Source: Sphingopyxis sp. QXT-31 (GTDB lineage Bacteria; Pseudomonadota; Alphaproteobacteria; Sphingomonadales; Sphingomonadaceae). From it: a stretch of 64,000 bases of DNA. The stretch lies in contig NZ_CP019449.1 of the NCBI RefSeq assembly GCF_001984035.1, positions 2,170,001 to 2,234,000 on the forward strand, in the 5' to 3' direction. Made by a program: the position numbers and the translations under genes. The notes below the pieces were generated by a model. It had not been told where the DNA came from, did not search any database, and saw nothing but the letters and a program-made list of their open reading frames with translations. Positions 3-26,078 of this stretch are shown here, piece after piece; position 1 is the first letter of the stretch; every line of letters starts with the position of its first letter.

Positions 3-2486
3 TATCTCGGCCTCACCATCGCCGGGCTCGCTGGGGTCGCGCGGATGAAGCGCTGGCCGTGGCTCGCGCTCGCCGCCTTCTTCGGCGGCGTGGGCTGGAG
101 CCTGTGGATGCTGCTTGCGACCACCGCGCTCGATACGCTCGGCTCGCTGTCGATCGGCGGCTATGTGCTTCTCCTCGCGCTCGCGCTGCCGATGATCGCC
201 TTCGACGGCCCGCGTGCCGCGCTGCTCCGCGCCGGGTCGGCGATCGTCGGCGCGTTGCAACTCGCCCTGCTCGTCGGCATCGGCGGCTTCGCCCCGCTCC
301 ACTGGGGGCTCTTCATCCTGATCGCCGCGGCGGGCCAGTGGCTCGCCTGGCGCGAGAAGGATTTTGCGATCGTCCCCTCGATCAGCCTCGCGCTGTCGGT
401 GCTGCTGCTTGCGGTCTGGCCCGATCCGGCGGCGGGCTGGTTCGCGACCATCGGCCTCGCGCTCGCCGCGATCCACGCTTTGCCCTTGCTCGCGAAGCTG
501 TGGGGCGAGACGCGAACGCTGCGCCGCACGCTCGAGCTTTGCGCGCTGGCGCTCGCCGCGCCGCCGCTGGTCAAATGGCATTTCTGGGATATCGCCGACA
601 GCGGACTGGCGCTCGTCGCGCTCGGCGCCGCGCTGGTCGCCGGCGCGGGCATCGCGCTCGGCTGGAAGGTCGAGGACCGCACCGGCGATAGCCGTTTCGC
701 CTGGCTGACCGCCGTGACGGGCATCCTCGTCGCGGTCGCCGCCTGCCTGATCGCGCCCGACTGGACTGCGCCGCTCGCGGTCGGCGCCGTCGCGGCCGCA
801 TTGCTCTTCTTCGGCAAGGCGGCAAAGGACCGGCGCATCGAGCCGATCGCCGCGAGCTTCGTCGCGCTCGCGCTGGTCGCGCTGATCGCCACCCCGCTCG
901 CGCTGGTCGAACTGCCGCGGCTGGTGGTCGGGGCCGGCGACGCCTTCGCGGGGCAGGCGCTGGTCCGCTGGGGCGGGCTGACCGCGCTGCTCGGCCTGTT
1001 CGCGGCCAGGGCCGTGGACCGCTACCTACGCTTCCTCGCGCTGACGATCGCCGGCGGCCTCGCTTATGGCGCGCTCGCACAGCTCGTCCCCGCCTGGAGC
1101 CTGACGCTCGCGATGGGCGCGATCGCAGCGGCGCTGTTCGCGCTCGCGCGGCGCCGCGGTACCCTGCCGATCGAGGGCCTGTCGCTCGCCTATGCGCTGC
1201 TCGCCGTGCTGCTGCTCGCATCGACGGGCCCCGGCGTCATTGCGCAATGGACGCGCCTCTATGGCAGCGATGAGGTGGCCACCGGCACCGCCATCCTGCG
1301 CTGGGGCGGCCTCACCCTGCTCGGCCTGCTCTACGCCGCCCTGTCGGCGCAGCCCGCGATCCGCCGCGTCGGCCAAGTTGCCGCCGCGCTGCTCGCCTAT
1401 GGTGCGCTCGCGCAGGTCGTGCCGGGGGCGTATCTGATGTTGGTCCCCGCACTCGGCGGTGCAGCGATGCTGCTCGCGGCGCGCCGCATCGACCTCGCGC
1501 GCGTCGATGCCGCGGCAGTCAGCTTCGCGGCAGTGAGCCTTGCTTGGGCCGTGCTGCCCGTCGGGGTCTGGGCGACCAAGGCCGTGCTCTCGCTCGGCGG
1601 CGTGCCGATGCTGTTCGACGCCCCTGCGCTCGCCATCGACCAGCTGTTATTGCGCCTGCTGCTCCCTGCCTTGCTCTTCGGCGCACCGCTGCTGCTGCTG
1701 CGCGAAGCGCTGCCGCGCTGGCTGTTGATCGGGGCTTTCGCGGTCATCGGCATCCTGGCCGGGATCGCGCTCCACTGCCTCTACCGCCTCGGTTTCGCGG
1801 CGGCGTTCGGCGGCGATTTCGTCGCCACCGGGGTCGCGCAGCGCATCGTCTGGGGCGCCCTGCTCGTCGGCAGCGGCTGGCTCGCGATGCGCCGCGGCCT
1901 CACCAGCCTCGCGCGGCCGCTCGTCGTCGCGGGGACCGCGCATGCGATCTGGTACGGCCTGCTGCTCCACAACCCACTGTGGACCGGGCAGGCAGTCGGA
2001 TCGCTGCCGATCGCCAACTGGCTCGCCCCGCTCTTCCTGCTGCCGGGTATCGGCCTGGTGCTCATCCGCACCCTCTTCCCCGACGCGCGCGCCGCGCTCG
2101 ACCGGATCGTGCAGGTCGCGGCGATGCTGCTCGTCGCGGGTTTCGCCTGGGCGACGCTGCGCCAGATCTTCCACGGCGGCCTGCTGGTCGCACCAGGGGT
2201 CACCGCGAGCGAGAATATCCTGCGCTCGATCCTGATCCTCGCGCTCGCGATCGGCTTCCTGCTCTGGGGCATCAGGCAGAACCGCCACGACTGGCGCATC
2301 GCGTCGCTGATCCTGATGCTCGGCGCGGTGGGCAAGGTCTTCCTGTTCGACGCCTCGGGGCTCGAAGGATTGCTGCGCATCGGCTCGTTCGTGGTACTGG
2401 GGTTCAGCCTGATCGGCATCGGCTGGCTCTACAGCCGCCAGCTCGCGCGGCCGGCAGCGCCGGCGGCACCCGAAAGGACAGAATGA
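3..2486 (+). CDS. DUF2339 polytopic membrane protein, 5'-truncated by window
   Basis: This is a very hydrophobic protein with many consecutive predicted transmembrane helices and a low-complexity Ala/Leu composition, as in the DUF2339 (COG5373) family of predicted membrane proteins. The first ATG is at 45, but the same frame stays open to base 3 and already encodes a hydrophobic segment (YLGLTIAGLAGVAR), so the true start lies upstream of the window. The C-terminus (YSRQLARPAAPAAPERTE) is complete. Function is unknown; the family is usually 800-1000 residues long, so some 100 or more N-terminal residues are probably missing. The tmRNA gene lies downstream on the other strand. Confidence 0.8.
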   Translation, partial: YLGLTIAGLAGVARMKRWPWLALAAFFGGVGWSLWMLLATTALDTLGSLSIGGYVLLLALALPMIAFDGPRAALLRAGSAIVGALQLALLVGIGGFAPLHWGLFILIAAAGQWLAWREKDFAIVPSISLALSVLLLAVWPDPAAGWFATIGLALAAIHALPLLAKLWGETRTLRRTLELCALALAAPPLVKWHFWDIADSGLALVALGAALVAGAGIALGWKVEDRTGDSRFAWLTAVTGILVAVAACLIAPDWTAPLAVGAVAAALLFFGKAAKDRRIEPIAASFVALALVALIATPLALVELPRLVVGAGDAFAGQALVRWGGLTALLGLFAARAVDRYLRFLALTIAGGLAYGALAQLVPAWSLTLAMGAIAAALFALARRRGTLPIEGLSLAYALLAVLLLASTGPGVIAQWTRLYGSDEVATGTAILRWGGLTLLGLLYAALSAQPAIRRVGQVAAALLAYGALAQVVPGAYLMLVPALGGAAMLLAARRIDLARVDAAAVSFAAVSLAWAVLPVGVWATKAVLSLGGVPMLFDAPALAIDQLLLRLLLPALLFGAPLLLLREALPRWLLIGAFAVIGILAGIALHCLYRLGFAAAFGGDFVATGVAQRIVWGALLVGSGWLAMRRGLTSLARPLVVAGTAHAIWYGLLLHNPLWTGQAVGSLPIANWLAPLFLLPGIGLVLIRTLFPDARAALDRIVQVAAMLLVAGFAWATLRQIFHGGLLVAPGVTASENILRSILILALAIGFLLWGIRQNRHDWRIASLILMLGAVGKVFLFDASGLEGLLRIGSFVVLGFSLIGIGWLYSRQLARPAAPAAPERTE

Positions 2487-2500
2487 AGGGAAAGGTGGGA

Positions 2501-2554
2501 CGATTCTGTTGCCCGGCTCGTCCCCAGCCGCTGGTATCCGATTCTGTTGCCCGG
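2501..2554. repeat. 16-bp direct repeat next to the 3' end of the tmRNA gene
   Basis: CGATTCTGTTGCCCGG occurs at 2501-2516 and again at 2539-2554, 38 bp apart, with imperfect similarity continuing past the second copy. The second copy runs into the palindrome CGGTTCGGTCCGAACCG (2552-2568) at the end of the tmRNA coding piece. tmRNA genes are classic integrase targets, so this could be an attachment-site duplication left by an excised element. That is inference; no integrase gene is in the window. Confidence 0.6.
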
Positions 2555-2852
2555 TTCGGTCCGAACCGCGTTCTATTTGAATAACCTTAGGCCGTGAGGC
2601 TTATCGGTTACGCAGCCAGAGCGAGTGCTTCGTTATCGTTAGCACTTATTGGTTTTGAGCCTTTAACGGGTTACTCAGCCCGGAAGAAACTACCGTCTTT
2701 GAACACACGTCGATCCTAGTTCGGCCCCGTCAGAAACCCGCGCACCCCTTCACAAGGGCGCGGGTTCGTGGTGGAGCCGCCGGGTACTGCCCCCGGGTCC
2801 GCTGTGCCTATTCCACGGCAACATTTATCCTCATAGTCGGCCGAAACCGACC
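2552..2852 (-). ncRNA. ssrA: Two-piece (circularly permuted) tmRNA
   Basis: tmRNA rescues stalled ribosomes by acting as an alanyl-tRNA and then as mRNA for a degradation tag. On the minus strand the acceptor piece comes first (about 2852 to 2769). It starts with a small hairpin (GGTCGG pairing with CCGAC) and ends in CGGCTCC-ACCA (2779-2769). A 40-nt spacer (2768-2729) with its own hairpin follows, and then the coding piece begins GGGGCCG (2728-2722). GGGGCCG and CGGCTCC form a full 7-bp acceptor stem with one G-U pair. The tag frame begins at the resume codon GCT (2643-2641) and reads ANDNEALALAA then TAA (2610-2608), a standard hydrophobic AA-ending proteolysis tag. The coding piece probably ends in the palindrome at 2552-2568. 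Outer ends are estimates. Confidence 0.93.
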
Positions 2853-2866
2853 TTCCCCATATAGGA

Positions 2867-2901
2867 AGCCCGCCCGCACTTGGAAAGAGCGCGGACGGGC
2901 T
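2867..2901 (-). terminator. Hairpin downstream of mscL
   Basis: AGCCCGCCCGC (2867-2877) pairs with GCGGACGGGCT (2891-2901) with one mismatch around a 13-nt loop. It lies 24 bp beyond the mscL stop and just before the tmRNA acceptor piece. Only a weak T-run (TTCCTAT) follows on the minus strand, so it may be a partial terminator. The same TTCCTATAT could be part of the tmRNA promoter. Confidence 0.55.
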
Positions 2902-2924
2902 AGGCCTTGAAAAGCGGTGGAAAA

Positions 2925-3341
2925 TTATTTCTTGCGCAGTTCGTCGCGGATTTCGGTGAGGATATCGACCTCGGTCGGGCCCGCGGGGGCATCGGGCGCC
3001 TTGCGCACGACCTTGTTCACCGTCTTGACCAGCAGGAAGATGATCCACGCCAGAATCAGGAAGTTGATCGTCGCAGTGATGAACGCGCCATAGCCGAACA
3101 TCGCGACCCCGGCTTCCTTCAGCTTGGCATAGTCGGTCGGCGAGACGCCCGCGGGCACGTCGCCCAGCAGGATGAACATGTTCGAAAAATCGACCCCGCC
3201 GAAGATCCAGCCGACGACGGGCATGATCAGATCTTCGGTCAACGACTTGGTGATCGTCGCGAAGGCGCCGCCGATGATGACGCCGACCGCCAGGTCGATG
3301 ACATTGCCGCGCGCGATAAATTCCCTGAACTCTGCCAACAT
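2925..3341 (-). CDS. mscL: Large-conductance mechanosensitive channel MscL
   Basis: MscL forms a homopentameric inner-membrane pore that opens under membrane tension to release solutes on osmotic downshock. The 138-residue length fits the family. The N-terminal signature ([20 protein letters not shown], residues 5-24) is near canonical. TM1 spans about 14-40 and TM2 about 82-108, separated by a periplasmic loop, with a short charged C-terminal helix ending in RDELRKK. The ATG at 3341 is preceded by GGGGAGAG at good spacing. The gene is monocistronic and divergent from lemA. Confidence 0.96.
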
Positions 3342-14172: not shown

Positions 14173-15972
14173 ATGGCGCTCACCCCGCAATGGCTGGACG
14201 AACTGCGTTCGCGCATCACGCTGTCGACCCTGATCGGGCGCTCGGTGAAGGTCACGCGCGCCGGCCGCGAATATAAGGCCTGCTGCCCCTTCCATAACGA
14301 AAAGACGCCCAGCTTCACGATCAACGACGAGAAAGGCTTCTACCATTGCTTCGGCTGCAGCGCCCACGGCGATGCGATCCGCTGGATGACCGATCAGCGC
14401 GGCCTCTCCTTCATGGACGCGGTCAAGGAACTCGCCGCCGAGGCCGGCATGGAGGTCCCCGCCGCCGACCCGCGCGCCGCCAAAAAGGCCGAGGAGGCAG
14501 CGAGCTTGCGCGATGTTGTCCAGGCCGCGGCCGACTGGTTCACCCAGCAGCTCGGCAGCAGCAACGGCGCCCCGGCGCGCGACTATCTGGCGAAGCGCGG
14601 CATCTCGGAGGCGACGCGCAAGGCCTTCGGCTTCGGCCTCGCCCCCGACAGCCGCAGCGCGCTCAAGGAAGCGCTCAAGAAATTCCCGACCGCGATGCTC
14701 GTCGAATCGGGCATGCTCATCGCGGTCGATGAGAAGGAGCCTTACGACCGCTTCCGCGGCCGGCTGATGATCCCGATCCGCGACGCGCGCGGCCGCGTGA
14801 TCGCGTTCGGCGGGCGCATCCTCGGCGACGGCGAGCCCAAATATCTGAATTCGCCCGACACGCCGCTCTTCGACAAGGGGCGCACGCTCTACAATCTCGA
14901 CAAGGCCTCGCCCGCCTCGCGCCAGACGAACCGCATCATCGTCGTCGAGGGCTATATGGACGTCATCGCGCTCGCCGAGGCGGGGATCGTTGACGCCGTC
15001 GCGCCTCTCGGCACCGCGCTGACCGAGAACCAGCTCGGCATGATCTGGCGCATGGTAGACGAACCAGTTCTCTGCTTCGACGGCGATAACGCAGGAACGA
15101 AAGCGGCAAGGAGAGCCGCGAACTTGGCAATCAAGATTTTGCCTAACGGTAAAACCGTAAAAATTGCACAATTGCCTCCGGGCCAAGACCCGGATGATGT
15201 GGTCCGGAATCAAGGAAGCCAAACATTTGAAAACCTGATTGCGGGCGCTGTACCGTTGTCAGAGTTCACTTATCAGTCAACGCTTCTGGAAACAAACTTC
15301 AACGTCCCTGAAGGAAGAGCCAAGCTTCTAAATTCGCTCACTGAAATCGCGGATTCTACGCCGGACAAGGTGATCTCAGATCAGTACAGGAGCTGGTTCA
15401 AAACACGCTTTTATCAGGATTTCGGATGGAACGCGAAAGACCGACACACCATCTACCAGTCAGCTATCGCGACTTCCGAAAAACAGAACATCGTTCTGTA
15501 CAAATCATACGTGAGAAGCGCATTCCACGCCGCTTCGCGGTTCCCGCAATTCTTGCTGAATCACTATGAAAGCATTGGCGCGATCAAGATGCTCGACGAC
15601 AAAATTTACGATGACCTGAAGCGCTGGCAGGACGTCATTTGTGATTTCTTGTTCAAAAACCCTGGAAGTGACGATGACGCCATTGCTCAAATCGTGGCGA
15701 GGGGCGAGTTCGATTCAATTCACAAATTTGATCTCCAAAAGGATCTTCGATTTAGCTGGAACATAGAGCCTGAACTCGTCCAAGAACGCCTGCCAAAATT
15801 CATAAATTTCCTTGCCGTTGAGACCGATTTGAATCTGGAATTCGAGAGGCTGGATAGAGACCTGATCAACAACTTCTCCCCTGAAACATACGACGCGATC
15901 CAAAGGCGCCAACAGCTTCTGAGGGCCGAGCGCTCAAGGCTCTATGGTGAGGCGTTGGATTGGATGGACTAA
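14173..15972 (+). CDS. dnaG: DNA primase DnaG (composition-chimeric)
   Basis: DnaG synthesises RNA primers at the replication fork. The CHC2 zinc site is Cys38, His41, Cys59 and Cys62. The TOPRIM catalytic residues are Glu259 (VVEGYMDV) and Asp303/Asp305 (CFDGDNAG). At 599 residues the protein is near normal size and the frame is intact. From about base 15060 (residue 297, just before the DGD motif) to the stop, the DNA changes sharply. Hand counts give 157/240 GC for 14821-15060 but 112/240 for 15121-15360, with many AT-ending codons. The N-terminal half looks native and the C-terminal half, including the helicase-binding region, looks foreign. It is followed by rpoD. Confidence 0.95.
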   Translation: MALTPQWLDELRSRITLSTLIGRSVKVTRAGREYKACCPFHNEKTPSFTINDEKGFYHCFGCSAHGDAIRWMTDQRGLSFMDAVKELAAEAGMEVPAADPRAAKKAEEAASLRDVVQAAADWFTQQLGSSNGAPARDYLAKRGISEATRKAFGFGLAPDSRSALKEALKKFPTAMLVESGMLIAVDEKEPYDRFRGRLMIPIRDARGRVIAFGGRILGDGEPKYLNSPDTPLFDKGRTLYNLDKASPASRQTNRIIVVEGYMDVIALAEAGIVDAVAPLGTALTENQLGMIWRMVDEPVLCFDGDNAGTKAARRAANLAIKILPNGKTVKIAQLPPGQDPDDVVRNQGSQTFENLIAGAVPLSEFTYQSTLLETNFNVPEGRAKLLNSLTEIADSTPDKVISDQYRSWFKTRFYQDFGWNAKDRHTIYQSAIATSEKQNIVLYKSYVRSAFHAASRFPQFLLNHYESIGAIKMLDDKIYDDLKRWQDVICDFLFKNPGSDDDAIAQIVARGEFDSIHKFDLQKDLRFSWNIEPELVQERLPKFINFLAVETDLNLEFERLDRDLINNFSPETYDAIQRRQQLLRAERSRLYGEALDWMD

Positions 15973-16217
15973 GCGCCGGTGGGCTTGACAACTCAAGCCG
16001 TCGCGAAGGGCTTGATTGCGAGGGGTTGCTTGCCATATTGGGGGCAATGAAAGTGTATAATAGGGCAACGACATTGCTTAGAGCCCGCGGATTGCACTTC
16101 TCATTCAATCGATGGCTGGAAAGCGACAGAGGCCGAAGTGGCGCGAAAACTGCGGCACTCCACCTCCAAACGTGCAGTCCGAACAGCTCATTAGTGCCCC
16201 TTAGGCAGGAACCGTAA
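15973..16217 (+). promoter_or_regulatory. AT-rich spacer with candidate rpoD promoter
   Basis: This 245-bp spacer continues the low-GC composition of the dnaG 3' half. It holds a perfect -10 box, TATAAT at 16056-16061, with TTGCCA at 16030-16035 as a poor -35 candidate at 20-bp spacing. No convincing gene is seen. The short frame at 15960-16217 has no ribosome site or recognisable protein. Confidence 0.45.
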
Positions 16218-18239
16218 ATGGCCACCAAGAACACCGACACCGATACCGACACCGACGGCCCGCTGATCGACCTGAACGAGGCCGATGTCAAAAAGCTGAT
16301 CGCGCGCGGCAAGAAGCGCGGTTACCTGACCTATGACGAGTTGAATGCGGCGCTGCCGCAGGACGAGATGTCGTCGGAGCAGATCGAGGACATCATGTCG
16401 GCGATCTCCGACATGGGCATCAACATCGTCGAGAGCGACGAGGACGTCCAGGAAGAGGCCGACCAGGAACCCGACGACGAGGTCGACGTCAGCGCCGGCA
16501 CCGGTTCGCTGTCGAACCCCGCGATCGAGAAGAAGAAGGAAACGGTCGATCGCACCGACGATCCCGTCCGCATGTACCTGCGCGAAATGGGCGCGGTCGA
16601 ACTGCTCAGCCGCGAGGGCGAAATCGCGATCGCGAAGCGCATCGAGGCGGGCCGCGACACGATGATCCTGGGACTGTGCGAAAGCCCGCTGACCTTCAAC
16701 GCGATCATCGAATGGTCGAACGCGCTCAACAACGGCGACATGCAGCTGCGCGAGATCGTCGATCTCGAAGCGATGCTGTCGAAGGATCCGGCGCCCGAAA
16801 ACCTCGAGGAAGAGGGCGCCGAGGATGACGGCGAGATCAGCGAAAAGACCGCCGGCGTCTCGTTCAAGGACGAGGACGAGGTCGAGGAAGAGCCCGCCGC
16901 CAGCGATGACGACGAGGACGGCGAAGGCACCTCGGGCAAGCGCGAGAGCTTCGAGGAAGACGACGAGGACAATACGCTGAGCCTCGCGGCGATGGAGGAA
17001 TTGCTCAAGCCCGACGCGCTCGAGAAATTCGCCAACATCACCAAGAGCTTCAAGGCCTTTTCGAAGCTGCAGGAAACCCGGCTAGACGCGCTGTCGGGCA
17101 TCGGCGAATTTCCGGCGGCATCGGAAAAGAAATATCACAAGCTGCGCGAGGACCTCACCGCGCAGGTCGAAGGCGTGCAGTTCCACAACACCAAGATCGA
17201 ATATCTCGTCGACCAGCTCTACAGCTACAACCGCCGCCTGACCGCATTGGGCGGCCAGATGCTGCGCCTCGCCGAGCGCCACAAGGTGCCGCGCAAGGCG
17301 TTCCTCGACAATTATGTCGGGCGCGAGCTCGAAGAAACCTGGCTCGAGGCGGTCGGTTCGATCGACAAGAAATGGGCCGCCTTCGCCGAGAACGAAGCGA
17401 GCGCGGTCGATCGCATCCGCGTGGAAATCAGCGAAATCGCCCAGGCCGCGGGCATGAGCCTGACCGAATTCCGCCGCGTCGTGAACATGGTCCAGAAGGG
17501 CGAGCGCGAAGCCCGCATCGCTAAGAAGGAAATGGTCGAGGCGAATTTGCGCCTCGTGATCTCGATCGCCAAGAAATACACGAACCGCGGCCTGCAGTTC
17601 CTCGACCTCATCCAGGAAGGCAATATCGGCCTGATGAAGGCGGTCGACAAGTTCGAGTACCGCCGCGGCTACAAGTTCTCGACCTATGCGACCTGGTGGA
17701 TCCGGCAGGCGATCACCCGCTCGATCGCCGACCAGGCGCGCACGATCCGTATCCCGGTCCATATGATCGAGACGATCAACAAGCTGGTGCGTTGCAGCCG
17801 CCAGTTCCTCCACGAGAGCGGCCGCGAGCCGACGCCCGAGGAAATGGCCGAGCGCCTGTCGATGCCGCTCGAAAAGGTCCGCAAGGTGATGAAGATCGCC
17901 AAGGAGCCGATCAGCCTCGAAACGCCGATCGGCGACGAGGAAGACAGCCACCTCGGCGATTTCATCGAGGACAAGAATGCCGTCATCCCGGTCGATGCCG
18001 CGGTGCAGTCGAACCTCAAGGAAACGGTCACGCGCGTGCTCGCGTCGCTCACCCCGCGCGAGGAACGTGTCCTGCGCATGCGCTTCGGCATCGGCATGAA
18101 CACCGACCACACGCTCGAGGAAGTCGGCCAGCAGTTCAGCGTGACGCGCGAGCGTATTCGCCAGATCGAGGCGAAGGCGCTGAGGAAGCTCAAGCACCCG
18201 AGCCGCAGCCGCAAGATGCGGTCGTTCCTCGACCAGTAA
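16218..18239 (+). CDS. rpoD: RNA polymerase primary sigma factor RpoD
   Basis: This is the housekeeping sigma-70, of 673 residues. Region 1.1 lies in the first 90 residues ([21 protein letters not shown]). Region 1.2 is near 112-148 ([20 protein letters not shown]). A long acidic non-conserved region runs to about 360. Region 2, about 437-515, contains the -10 binding and melting helix ([17 protein letters not shown]). Regions 3 and 4 follow, with the -35 helix-turn-helix ([20 protein letters not shown]). A short TDTDTDTD run from ACCGAC repeats sits at residues 6-13. Composition returns to high GC here. Confidence 0.98.
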
Positions 18240-22740: not shown

Positions 22741-24138
22741 TCAAAGCTGGTAGGCCACTTCGACGTCGCCCCAGCGGCGGCCGTTGATCACCACCGGCAT
22801 ATAGACGTTGCGCACCGTAACATAGTTGGTGCCGTCGCCCTCCTGGCGATAGACCGCCATGAAGAAGGGCGCGTTGCTCTTTTTCGCCGCCTTGTCGGTG
22901 TCGTCGAACAGGATGCGACCGTTGCGGCAATGCGCGGTATCGTGAACGACATCGCCCGTCGGGGCGCGCGAGCAGTCGGTGATATGCGTCGGCAGGAAAC
23001 CGTTCATATCGCCCGCCGAGGACATCTTTACCTCGGGATGGTTCGCCACGACATGGTCGAACAGCGGCCGCCAATTGGTGTCGGCCCAGTCGCACAGCGT
23101 GGTGCGGAAACGTTCGGGGTTCGACCCCGGCACGCGCACATAATTGGTGTCGAACAATTGCTCCATCGACAGCTCGCCCTTGGCGAGCGCCAGTTCGGCG
23201 ATCGCGACAAACTGGTCGCGCACGCGCGAGGCGAGCTCGACCACCGCCGAATCCTTCGGCGACACCCCGGCCGAGATCACCGCGTTGAACATGCGGTTCG
23301 ACACATGCTCCATTTTCAGGATCGAATCGCGCGTGCCGTCCAGCGTGGCGCTATTGTCGCGCACCGACGCGACGACGCGGTCGACCGCGTCGCGCACCTT
23401 GGCGCCGTTTGCATGCACCATCGCGCTCGACTGCGCGATCCGGTCGCTCTGGTCGTCGAGCAGCGCGACGAGATGCGTCGCGTCGTGCAGCGCGTCGGTG
23501 ATCGTTTCGAACTGCGCCTCGGCGCGGCTCGACTGTTCGACCCCCGACTGGATTTCGGTGACGAGGCCGCTGGCCTCGGTCGCGAGGCTGCCGATCGACC
23601 GGCGGATCTCGTCGGTCGCGCTGCGCGTATTCTGCGCCAATTTCTTCACCTCGGCGGCGACGACGGCGAAGGTGCGCCCGGCATCGCCCGCGCGCTCGGC
23701 TTCGATGGCCGCGTTCAAGGCAAGCATGTTGGTGGTCTTGGCGATCTGTTCGATCGACTGGCTGACCTGCTGCACCTGCGCCATCACCGCGGCGAAATTG
23801 GTGACATGCGTGCCGAGCCGCGCGACGAGATCGATGACCGAGCGGAACTCGCTGACCGCCGCGTTGACGCGCTCGGCGCCGGTGTCGAGCTGCTCGCACG
23901 CACGCGCCGACAGCAATTTCGCTTCATCGGTCGAATCGGCGATCTGACGCTGGTCGGCCTCGAGGCCGACGACGAACTCCTCGAGCCGCCCGAGCTCGAC
24001 GATCTGACGGTCCATCTGGTCGGTCGAGCGCTTGATCCGCCCCGCCGCCTCGCTGCACCCGACGGCCAGCTCGCCGCAGTCGCCCGCCACCGATTGGTCG
24101 AGGATCGGAGCCGCCGGATTTATGGACTCGAATTTCAT
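22741..24138 (-). CDS. Soluble methyl-accepting chemotaxis-type protein
   Basis: This protein has an N-terminal MCP signalling domain. The hairpin tip lies in [20 protein letters not shown] and [14 protein letters not shown], the region that contacts CheA/CheW. No transmembrane segment precedes it, so it is cytoplasmic. The domain order is reversed: about 130 C-terminal residues ([50 protein letters not shown]) look like a sensory module of the Cache type placed after the signalling helices. I prefer the ATG at 24138 ([11 protein letters not shown], 465 residues); an upstream ATG at 24246 would add 36 residues and overlap the next ORF. Confidence 0.85.
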
Positions 24139-24242
24139 TGCGCCACCCACGTTCGGAATCATCCGCAGGTGATGACCGATAATGGTTAACGCAGGGTCAA
24201 TGGGAAGCGAGAGCCAAAGGTCGGCTTCGGGGTGGGAAGCAG

Positions 24243-24575
24243 TCATTCGTTCGTAAGCCGATCGCCTCCCGCCACTAATGAGAACGCTCTGTCGGCGACA
24301 GTTTGAAGTGCTTCTATTGCATCGTGGCTGGGATGTTTAGAACGTAGATCCAATAGCGGGATCAAGGCGTTTCGAACCTCGGAGATCGCTTTCAGCTCAT
24401 CAGAAGCATAGCCATCCGAATCCAAAAAATCCGACAAACGCTCGTTCATCGCGTCCAAATAATCGCTATAAGGCACTTTGCCGGCCATCTGCCTATTACC
24501 ACGTAGCTGATTCAGCGCCTCTATTGCGCGTTCACGGATATCTTGGCGCGCCCATTCTGGTGATCTGTAAGGCAT
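24243..24575 (-). CDS. Small hypothetical protein in AT-rich patch
   Basis: This 110-residue soluble, charged, helical protein ([20 protein letters not shown]... ending GGDRLTNE) has no recognised family. Its DNA is AT-richer than the neighbours and uses codons such as TTA, AGA and ATA that are rare in this genome. Its 3' end lies just before the MCP gene. Possible foreign gene, perhaps an immunity or toxin-partner protein by size and charge, but nothing in the sequence proves this. Confidence 0.6.
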
Positions 24576-24603
24576 GATCCATCTTACGGCCCAACTTGAG
24601 CTT

Positions 24604-24625
24604 CCGCAATCGGTCGGAAGCGGAC
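24604..24625 (+). repeat. 20-bp repeat family E, copy 1
   Basis: CCGCAATCGGTCGGAAGCGGAC is the first of four copies of the consensus CCGCAAyCGGTCGnnAGCGG in the accessory patch; CCGC and GCGG at its ends are inverted. The others are at 24925-24944, 25501-25521 (inverted) and 25696-25715. Confidence 0.75.
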
Positions 24626-24626
24626 C

Positions 24627-24869
24627 CTATCGCAATGTGTGTTGATGGCGAATGTCTCTTTCGCTTGAGAGCGGATACACGCCTTCAGGTGTCAACCAGT
24701 CATCGACGCTCGGAGCCGCTGATTTAGGTTCGCCGACACCATTCCATAGGAGTCCAATCTCGTAAGGCTCCGCGTCGTCACCCCCAAAGAATTGATATTC
24801 AATTTGCCACCCGAGCCGAACTAATTCGGTGGCGTGCCGCGATGATCCTGTTCGCTGCAATCTGCCCAT
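24627..24869 (-). CDS. Small hypothetical protein between family E repeats
   Basis: This ORF of about 80 residues starts at the ATG at 24869 (MGRLQRTGSSRHATELVRLG), with GGGGGCG upstream; the frame stays open to 24914. It has aromatic-rich and acidic segments (WQIEYQFFGGDDAEPYEIGLLWNG) and no recognised family. It sits exactly between two family E repeats. Low GC and isolation suggest recent acquisition. Coding status is probable, not certain. Confidence 0.5.
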   Translation of the reverse strand: MGRLQRTGSSRHATELVRLGWQIEYQFFGGDDAEPYEIGLLWNGVGEPKSAAPSVDDWLTPEGVYPLSSERDIRHQHTLR

Positions 24870-24924
24870 AGCGCCCCCAGCCGTTGGGCTGGAGGTTAAG
24901 ATAAGGCACCACATTTTTCAACGT

Positions 24925-24944
24925 CCGGAATCGGTCGTTAGCGG
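24925..24944 (+). repeat. 20-bp repeat family E, copy 2
   Basis: CCGGAATCGGTCGTTAGCGG, followed by TCATT, lies in the divergent gap between the two small ORFs at 24627-24869 and 25019-25447. Confidence 0.7.
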
Positions 24945-25018
24945 TCATTCGCGCGAAATTGTCGCAACGACCGGTATCGACCGATTGTGGAGTTTCGTCA
25001 GCCCATTATACAGCTCTT

Positions 25019-25447
25019 GTGAAGCGCAAAGATTACACCCCGCAAGCTGAGGCTTTGTTCCAACGCTTCGCCGAACGTCACGGCCTTTCATACTCAGTTG
25101 CGCCAGAAGCACCTATTGAGACGCTTTGGATTTTTCCCGAGCAACAGAAACTTTCTATGCCCATCATGTTAGGTCTTCAGAACGGGGACGCGTTAAACTT
25201 CGGCGTGGCCGATTTTTGGTCATACTTCTCCCCTTTTGAAACAGTTGCGGAAGAATTTGACCGAGCGATCGATGCTTGGGTATCCGGTGACGCCCGGGTC
25301 GCGGTGCACCGCGGCCGGGGCCGGAAGCTTCAAATGCGCGATGGCGATAACTGGAAAACGCTCTACAGCGCGAACGGAGGCCTTTTTCCCATACTGTCCA
25401 ATCCACTCCGCTTCATATCGAACCGGCCATTGAATCAGCAGCATTGA
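25019..25447 (+). CDS. Hypothetical protein between family E repeats
   Basis: This ORF of about 142 residues starts at a GTG (25019); a TTG at 24959 is an alternative and no strong ribosome site supports either. The product looks like a real folded protein: ETLWIFPEQQKLSMPIMLGLQNGDALNFGVADFWSYFSPFE, then GRGRKLQMRDGDNWKTLY. No family was recognised. It is AT-rich relative to the chromosome and bounded by family E repeats on both sides. Confidence 0.6.
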   Translation: MKRKDYTPQAEALFQRFAERHGLSYSVAPEAPIETLWIFPEQQKLSMPIMLGLQNGDALNFGVADFWSYFSPFETVAEEFDRAIDAWVSGDARVAVHRGRGRKLQMRDGDNWKTLYSANGGLFPILSNPLRFISNRPLNQQH

Positions 25448-25500
25448 GGTCCGCGCTCTACTCGATCCCTCTCCTCTCTCGCGCGCTCGGCGTCGAATCG

Positions 25501-25521
25501 TCAGCAATCGACCGGTTGCGG
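25501..25521 (-). repeat. 20-bp repeat family E, copy 3 (inverted)
   Basis: Read on the minus strand this is CCGCAACCGGTCGATTGCTGA. The first 13 bases match the consensus and the GCGG end is degraded. It lies 54 bp after the stop of the ORF at 25019-25447. Confidence 0.6.
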
Positions 25522-25596
25522 ACACATCCAACGATGTTATGTCTGTGTTGGCCCTGACACGGTCGGCGTGGGCGCAATAGCTTACTGTTGCGTCTC

Positions 25597-25626
25597 GGCG
25601 GGTTCGACTCCCGCCCGTGGGTCCGC
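25597..25626 (+). pseudogene. tRNA 3'-end remnant (T-arm and acceptor strand)
   Basis: GGCGGGTTCGACTCCCGCC (25597-25615) is a complete tRNA T-stem and T-loop with the invariant TTCGA, followed by CGTGGGTCCGC, which looks like an acceptor 3' strand. The expected 5' strand (GGACCCAC) and a standard 7-base anticodon loop are missing upstream. This is a tRNA relic or an attachment-site fragment rather than a working tRNA. Confidence 0.6.
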
Positions 25627-26078
25627 TTCTTCTTCAACGCCGAAGGCCGCTCCCCACCCCATTTAGGCCAATCAGCCCCGATCCGGACGGAATGACCGCA
25701 ACCGGTCGTCAGCGGCCATTTGCGCCAACCCGATCAAAAACCGCTTTCCGAATAAATCCCGCTGTGGCATGTTCTTCTTTCGTTCTTTGATTCCGTGGAT
25801 ATCCGCCCGCCGTCCCCGCCGTCCGGGGGCAATCCTCGTGGTCGGCCACCGGAGACAAAACCCGTCGCCCAACCAGCAGGGAAGACCTCGAAAAAAATGC
25901 GTCATTGGGCTGAACTTTCCTGAACTTTGCCCCGGCGCCGGTTAAAAATCGCGCCGCATCGCTAATTCGCGAATGAAGGTGCGCCGTTTTCCGCCACTCT
26001 GTCGCGATCCAATGGCGCGCACTTTCCGTTTACGTAAAGCAGTTGCGCCCGCCCCCGCGACCGTTTACGCTTTGCCCC
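25627..26078. other. Gene-free region before the VWA gene
   Basis: No supported gene lies here. It holds family E repeat copy 4 (25696-25715), a short direct repeat CTGAACTTT (25912-25929 region), a GC-rich hairpin near 25812-25836, and the palindrome TTTACGTAAA at 26029-26038, about 40 bp before the VWA start. The last is the best regulatory candidate. Confidence 0.5.
25696..25715 (+). repeat. 20-bp repeat family E, copy 4
   Basis: CCGCAACCGGTCGTCAGCGG, flanked by ATGA and CCATT, fits the consensus fully. It lies 70 bp beyond the tRNA remnant. Confidence 0.75.

What the first reader, a model, noticed from the sequence alone, without database searches (positions are those of the whole stretch)
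14173..16217. dnaG is a composition chimera: AT-rich 3' half on a GC-rich 5' half
The reading frame is intact and catalytic residues are present, but GC falls from about 65% (157/240 counted, 14821-15060) to about 47% (112/240, 15121-15360) just at the conserved DGD motif (around base 15060). It stays low to the stop and through the 245-bp spacer, then recovers in rpoD. Replacing the helicase-binding half of primase could change coupling to DnaB. One model is an element that integrates inside dnaG and restores the reading frame with its own 3' end; another is a phage- or plasmid-driven allele swap. Amelioration limits suggest a fairly recent event.
Basis: partly seen in the sequence, partly recalled or inferred. 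Interest (0 to 1): 0.72.

Follow-up and report, generated by a model that had tools for sequence, protein, structure and literature searches.

The report
Primase gene with swapped rear half
In this Sphingopyxis-group genome the back half of the essential DNA-copying enzyme primase was replaced by a very different version, while a scrap of the old gene was kept just behind it, probably because it holds the start switch of the next essential gene; relatives in other genera show the same kind of swap.

Summary
dnaG (14173-15972) is intact, but GC3 falls from 0.90 to 0.58 at base ~15055, just before DGD. Its GC drop is the largest of 135 family loci read (-0.18; mean -0.005, sd 0.035). The rear half is foreign: ~25% identical to congeners whose front halves are 95-98% identical.

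New: part of the old gene is still there. Right behind the new stop lie ~172 bp of the native dnaG tail (15983-16154), then rpoD. This remnant carries a block nearly invariant at DNA level in congeners, with CTTGA-N17-CCATATT, a heat-shock-type motif that normally sits inside dnaG and is probably an rpoD promoter. The replacement ends just upstream of it.

The same anatomy occurs in four further genera, with different new halves. The genome's only DnaB is 99% identical to that of the nearest relative, so the helicase was not exchanged too. No repeats and no element genes lie between dnaG and rpoD.

Best explanation: recombination with a divergent dnaG, homologous in the TOPRIM segment and illegitimate on the 3' side, surviving only if the rpoD promoter is kept. 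Donor and selective cause are unknown; an element integrating inside dnaG is not supported.

The parts
14173..15972 (+). chimeric dnaG, 599 aa (CHC2 zinc finger, DNAG_N, TOPRIM; rear half foreign)
14173..15054 (+). native front part of dnaG (codons 1-294), Sphingopyxis-type
   Evidence: blastn homology to congeners from the start to 15119-15123 in most; front-half trees
15052..15060 (+). 5' join of the incoming block (native MVPVP, window MVDEP as in P0001)
   Evidence: DNA alignment and GC3 change-point 15055
15055..15982 (+). incoming block: rear half of DnaG with its own stop, then about 10 bp; GC 0.491
15983..16154 (+). remnant of the native dnaG tail (native residues ~511-569), no longer part of the dnaG frame
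   Evidence: tblastn with 29 congeners 63-81% aa over 43-63 aa; blastn; alignment
16005..16065 (+). DNA block nearly invariant in congeners, probable rpoD promoter region
   Evidence: 56 of 61 columns invariant in at least 97% of 29 congeners, window keeps 54 of 56; synonymous-codon conservation peak
16011..16039 (+). heat-shock-type motif CTTGATTGCGAGGGGTTGCTTGCCATATT
16056..16061 (+). TATAAT, conserved in the aligned congeners
   Evidence: the sigma-70 pattern scan reports no two-hexamer site here
16191..16217 (+). native rpoD leader resumes; the last ~60 native dnaG codons before it are missing
16218..18239 (+). rpoD, up to 97% identical to congeners

Best explanation
The rear half of dnaG, from the TOPRIM DGD strand to the stop, was replaced by a divergent rear half from another dnaG-type primase. 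The 5' join lies in the strongly conserved TOPRIM segment, which suits homologous recombination. The incoming block ends about 10 bp after its own stop and joins the old gene about 28 bp upstream of a probable rpoD promoter that is embedded in the old dnaG coding sequence. The old tail behind the join no longer codes for primase; it is kept as promoter and leader of rpoD, and its last ~60 codons are gone. The new rear half keeps the DnaG build (end of the polymerase domain, helical bundle, long helical hairpin) and must work with the unchanged DnaB. Shown by sequence: replacement, both joins, remnant, conserved block, recurrence in other genera, no exchange of DnaB here. Inferred: that the block is the rpoD promoter, that keeping it decides which recombinants survive, and the recombination route. 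Unknown: donor and selective cause.
For: GC3 and residue change at the same base. DNA homology to congeners stops at ~15121 and resumes at 15983; native tail behind the stop. Synonymous-codon identity 0.87-0.95 at residues 506-550 against 0.70 overall in 29 Sphingopyxis genes. The motif lies inside dnaG in 99 of 153 genomes read, and behind or at the stop in 8, of which 7 keep a recognisable tail of their own genus. Front-half identity to congeners falls from 0.71-0.96 to 0.24-0.38 at +16 to +70 residues from FDGD in these 7. Same motif type 100 bp before one groES gene of this genome. Different trees for the halves. DnaB 99%. Precedent of a heat-shock promoter for the sigma gene inside dnaG: PMC2824700, passages.
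Against: No transcript start was measured; the sigma-70 scan finds no site in the spacer. The strict motif occurs once in the genome, and so does its backward control, so its mere presence is weak evidence; the case rests on its conserved place. Two of three groES genes gave no such motif, and 45 of 153 dnaG loci have no strict motif, so other promoters must serve there. Point-wise decay of the remnant around the block is not clear: the window keeps 7 of 8 invariant columns upstream and 34 of 39 downstream, against 54 of 56 inside. The donor was not found. Illegitimate joining alone does not explain why little native DNA is left upstream of the motif.
Confidence: 0.8

Rival explanations
1. Cassette spread: the displaced allele (new rear half plus remnant with promoter) arose earlier in another Sphingopyxis and reached the window's lineage by ordinary double crossover in the front half and around rpoD. 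Then the illegitimate join is older than this genome.
For: P0001 (95%) and P0002 (89%) carry the same rear half on other Sphingopyxis front halves. Holding win, P0001 and P0002 together in the front-half tree is rejected at p-AU 0.016, all five with P0003/P0004 at 0.041. The motif spacer of the window matches most congeners rather than the nearest relative G032.
Against: win and P0001 alone are not rejected as sisters (p-AU 0.17). No DNA of P0001-P0004 was read, so a shared remnant is not shown.
Confidence: 0.5
2. The donor was a mobile-element primase (phage or plasmid), which would explain the low GC of the new half and its lack of an internal rpoD promoter.
For: New halves are AT-rich against the front half in G000, G191 and G210 (and G451). 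A plasmid of Sphingopyxis carries a TOPRIM protein 45.6% identical over residues 96-478, and one 880-kb sphingomonad record labelled plasmid carries a dnaG 51.8% identical over 93%.
Against: No plasmid match to the rear 190 residues at E 1e-5; phage matches at most 24-33% identical; none in viral contigs beyond residue 138. All 14 matches among 396 genomes of the order lie in the same family. G332, with the motif inside dnaG, also has a drop of 0.10, so low GC alone is no mark of an element.
Confidence: 0.2
3. A site-specific element integrated inside dnaG, restored the frame with its own 3' end, and was later lost.
For: A new 3' end followed by the old tail is what such integrations leave.
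Against: About 650 bp of native codons are missing; an integrase would keep them. No repeats; no element between dnaG and rpoD in the genus loci read. The 5' joins differ somewhat in place between cases.
Confidence: 0.04
4. The rear half diverged in place, or the chimera is an assembly artefact.
For: None found.
Against: Old tail and new half stand side by side; single-contig genome, completeness 100 and contamination 0.24; independent relatives P0001 and P0002.
Confidence: 0.02

Closest known systems
Heat-shock promoter of the sigma gene inside dnaG, macromolecular synthesis operon of E. coli, similar in B. subtilis (PMC2824700, passages seen)
   Same: A promoter of rpoD/sigA lies within the dnaG coding sequence, shortly before the sigma gene.
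   Different: Here the promoter was left behind by dnaG: it lies in a remnant after the new stop. No start site was measured.
Exchange of C-terminal modules with orphan old ends downstream, as in CdiA/Rhs loci (PMC3150448, passages seen)
   Same: A variable C-terminal part is exchanged at a conserved junction and old C-terminal pieces stand behind the gene.
   Different: An essential housekeeping enzyme, not a toxin; no partner immunity gene; the old piece seems kept for a promoter, not for its protein.
Homology-facilitated illegitimate recombination in transformation (listing and abstract starts only; otherwise recalled)
   Same: One join in homologous sequence, the other in sequence without homology.
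   Different: The illegitimate joins fall in one narrow place in several genera; the uptake route is unknown.
Mosaic genes by intragenic recombination between species (recalled)
   Same: A chimeric gene with a compositional and phylogenetic break.
   Different: Partner halves are only ~25% identical and the event recurs at the same place in different genera.

Membership tests
DnaG primase | CHC2 zinc finger, DNAG_N and TOPRIM domains | tested here: met
   Pfam above cut-off for Zn_ribbon_DnaG, DNAG_N, Toprim, Toprim_2 and Toprim_4
DnaG primase | C-terminal helicase-binding domain | tested here: inconclusive
   DnaB_bind 17.5 bits, below cut-off 20.6; AlphaFold model has a helical bundle and a long hairpin; Foldseek hits to DnaG C-terminal domains only at E 0.3 or worse; the second look barely covers residues after 416
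DnaG primase | binds DnaB and primes replication | not testable with these tools
   needs biochemistry
RpoH-type heat-shock promoter of rpoD inside dnaG | motif at a conserved place before rpoD | tested here: met
   inside dnaG in 99 of 153 genomes read, 291-393 bp before the stop in those; behind or at the stop in 8
RpoH-type heat-shock promoter of rpoD inside dnaG | same motif before classical heat-shock genes of the genome | tested here: inconclusive
   one of three groES genes
RpoH-type heat-shock promoter of rpoD inside dnaG | measured start site, heat induction | not testable with these tools
   needs RNA data
Site-specific element integrated in a gene | att-like repeats, integrase or element genes, complete displaced native 3' end | tested here: not met
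C-terminal module exchange with orphan old end | different C-terminal modules at one conserved junction, old end downstream, in several lineages | tested here: met
   7 genomes in 5 genera

The most novel reading that the evidence does not exclude
The rear half of DnaG is an exchangeable, diversifying module in Sphingomonadaceae: it is swapped again and again because something (phage, plasmid or toxin) targets or exploits it, and the embedded rpoD promoter dictates where swaps can end. An essential replisome protein would then behave like a polymorphic toxin or surface gene.
Probability: 0.25. Interest if true: 0.82.

Novelty: new variant of a known kind. Interest (0 to 1): 0.62.

Why it matters
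Replisome genes are usually taken to be inherited whole. Here the helicase-contacting half of primase was replaced in genomes of five genera of one family, while in the window's genome DnaB stayed as it was. That makes testable how loose primase-helicase recognition is and what selects for new primase ends. The remnants also show how a promoter embedded in a coding sequence can limit where genes may be exchanged, leaving tails that annotation passes over.

Tried and rejected
Element insertion: no repeats at 14900-16300; among the genus loci read, dnaG and rpoD are adjacent. Phage or plasmid donor; nothing close. Family and order searches gave at best 36-38% (G134). Exchange of the partner: DnaB not swapped. 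Old tail kept as a protein: rejected, because the window lost ~60 of its codons and G444's tail has an internal TAG, while the motif is kept in all. One class of rear half as the driver (classes I/II): rejected, because G505's new half is nearer to class I. In genus g74, G444 and G504 share tail (88%) and rpoD (90%) and may share one displacement; hence I count five genera as surely separate and a second event in g74 (G505) as probable. L165 (G374) and L120 (G154) looked like cases but are frameshifted native genes. G592 and G451 were not counted: motif behind or at the stop, but no recognisable tail.

Rows dropped: one search left out L033, L077, P0022 and P0023 (no DGD found) and used P0001-P0040 only, of 120 listed proteins; one search left out six more rows; one search left out twelve rows and used my class labels; could not read 18 of 153 loci, read afterwards; L034, L043, L046, L057 and L058 were left out as plasmid-borne, broken or cut. 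The 153 loci are not a random sample: they come from hits ranked by similarity to the window and from follow-up of cases, so 8 of 153 is no frequency.

Full report
Observation. dnaG at 14173-15972 is an open frame of 599 codons plus stop. GC is 0.654 at 14821-15060 and 0.467 at 15121-15360. A likelihood scan of third-position GC puts the change after codon 294, base 15055, from 0.90 to 0.58. The genome is one 4.285-Mb contig, the window is 2170001-2234000, and there is one full dnaG. The genus is Sphingopyxis by two contig matches: G068's 422,455-base contig carries a TOPRIM gene at the place seen in plasmid record NZ_CP009430.1, Sphingopyxis macrogoltabida, and G004's 160,713-base contig has the length of NZ_NIWD01000003.1, Sphingopyxis sp..

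Relatives. In 29 of 29 congeneric loci (L003-L031) the C-half GC is 0.64-0.71. The rpoD start was located in 22 of them, 29-49 bp behind the dnaG stop; the script left the other 7 blank. Here the spacer is 245 bp. Over 135 family loci the C-minus-N GC difference averages -0.005 (sd 0.035); the window has -0.181, the extreme, followed by G191 (-0.147), G210 (-0.104), G451 (-0.102) and G332 (-0.100; motif inside dnaG, so no case). In 80 genomes of the genus the rear half (289 aa) matched at full length only in G000. Of 72 others with a match, dnaG matched at most to residue 116; one plasmid-borne protein of G068 reached 166; 7 genomes had no match.

Joins. blastn against congeners gives homology up to 15119-15123 in most, none to 15982 apart from one 34-bp piece in L020, homology again from 15983 or 16005 to at most 16154 in most, and again from about 16191-16206 in most. 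Residues already differ from 15052-15060 on (native MVPVP, window MVDEP as in P0001), so the block begins there. The piece 15983-16154 is the old gene's tail: native residues ~511-569 of L003-L031 match it at 63-81% over 43-63 aa. About 60 further native codons are gone.

What the remnant is for. In 29 class I Sphingopyxis dnaG genes (L003-L030 and L035) synonymous-codon identity averages 0.70 but is 0.87-0.95 over residues 506-550; the eight best 27-column windows of 533 start at residues 508-516, and the block I had named (residue 518) ranks tenth. The remnant covers this stretch. From 16005 to 16065, 56 of 61 columns are invariant in at least 97% of 29 congeners and the window keeps 54 of 56; outside, it keeps 7 of 8 upstream and 34 of 39 downstream, so faster decay outside is at most suggested. 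The block holds CTTGA-N17-CCATATT (16011-16039) and TATAAT (16056-16061). The strict motif occurs once in the genome, its backward control also once. A like motif, CTTGA-N18-CCATAT, lies 100 bp before one of three groES genes; the other two gave none. A heat-shock promoter of the sigma gene inside dnaG is described for E. coli, with a similar one in B. subtilis (PMC2824700, passages). I infer that the block is an rpoD promoter. Its likeness to the RpoH consensus is recalled, no start site was measured, and the sigma-70 scan found no site at 15900-16260.

Recurrence. I read dnaG-rpoD loci of 153 genomes: 135 and 18 more. The motif lies inside dnaG in 99 (93 and 6), behind or at the stop in 9, and is absent in strict form in 45 (33 and 12). 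Of the 9, G374 is a frameshifted native gene, which leaves G000, G134, G444, G504, G505, G191, G210 and G592. In 7 of these 8 the DNA behind the stop is recognisably the dnaG tail of the host's own genus, for example G191 83-88% aa to three congeners and G210 67% to G270; G592 gave no tail match. G451 has a weaker motif overlapping its stop and no tail match. By blastx the native tail resumes roughly 2-71 bp upstream of the motif in all 7, although in the window's case about 650 bp of native gene separate the 5' join from that point. With evenly spread joins this would be of the order of 1 in 100,000 for five independent cases (my arithmetic, a rough guide only). Identity to congeners falls from 0.71-0.96 to 0.24-0.38 at +16 to +70 residues from FDGD in these 7; four control pairs keep 0.63-0.83 in the second half. 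In genus g74, 3 of 26 genomes carry remnants, with three rear halves that are 27-31% identical to each other; G444 and G504 share 88% of the tail and 90% of rpoD and may share one displacement. In genus g53, 1 of 14 does (G134). So five genera (g1, g53, g74, g110, g45) are surely separate, and a sixth event (G505) is probable.

Histories of the halves. The rear-half search listed 120 of 577 proteins: P0001 95%, P0002 89%, P0003 and P0004 61-62%, the next 36%. In front-half trees the window joins G032 (98% identity; SH-aLRT 85, 95), P0002 joins G022 and P0001 falls in a group of other Sphingopyxis. In the rear-half tree win and P0001-P0004 are one clade with SH-aLRT 100, with warnings of long branches. 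Holding all five together in the front-half tree is rejected at p-AU 0.041 and win+P0001+P0002 at 0.016; win+P0001 alone is not (0.17) (G032 left out). Two broad rear-half classes need 12 changes on the front-half tree, 6 of them forced by starred branches of a quick tree.

Function. The window model (mean pLDDT 81) and a congener model (82) share the polymerase domain, a helical bundle and a long hairpin; the congener has a low-confidence linker at about 426-464 that the window lacks. Foldseek finds DnaG cores strongly and DnaG C-terminal domains only weakly, E 0.3 or worse. Pfam DnaB_bind stays below its cut-off in both proteins. The genome's only DnaB by PF00772 is 99% identical over its length to that of G032, whose DnaG has the old rear half. 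Helicase and primase end were therefore not exchanged together; whether binding changed is untested.

Mechanism. The simplest account is recombination with a divergent dnaG: homologous crossing-over in the TOPRIM stretch, a join without homology on the far side, and survival of recombinants that keep the rpoD promoter. It explains the place of the 3' join, the kept old tail, and the lack of element genes or repeats. It does not explain why so little native DNA is left upstream of the motif; a donor whose own promoter lies behind its dnaG would, and G451 has such a layout. The donor remains unknown, and so does the reason for repeated exchange.

Novelty. Searches for Sphingopyxis dnaG-rpoD, primase domain swaps, rpoD heat-shock promoters in dnaG and recombination with the helicase-binding domain listed no report of this by title or abstract start. 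The library lacks most subscription papers, so absence from print is not shown.

Noticed in passing
L031 (G032) 448-3276; also G010, G027, G034, G069, G095 by frame length: Six of 80 genus genomes have dnaG frames of 945-964 codons. In G032 a LAGLIDADG-type intein-like insert interrupts the zinc finger right at a zinc-binding cysteine (the Intein_splicing model stays below its cut-off).
   Followed up: partly
G000:C1:1185887-1186345, locus L002 1432-2430: A second, 332-aa primase-like protein with a CHC2-type start lies elsewhere in the genome, 38% identical to DnaG residues 8-162.
   Followed up: no
L165 (G374) and L120 (G154): dnaG frames end early while the native rear half goes on in another frame: assembly errors or broken genes.
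   Followed up: no
L059 (G451) around the dnaG stop: Foreign-looking rear half (GC 0.57 against 0.68) with a weaker heat-shock-type motif overlapping the stop codon and no recognisable old tail.
   Followed up: partly
window 24001-26000: Second dip of GC in the window, 0.55-0.57.
   Followed up: no
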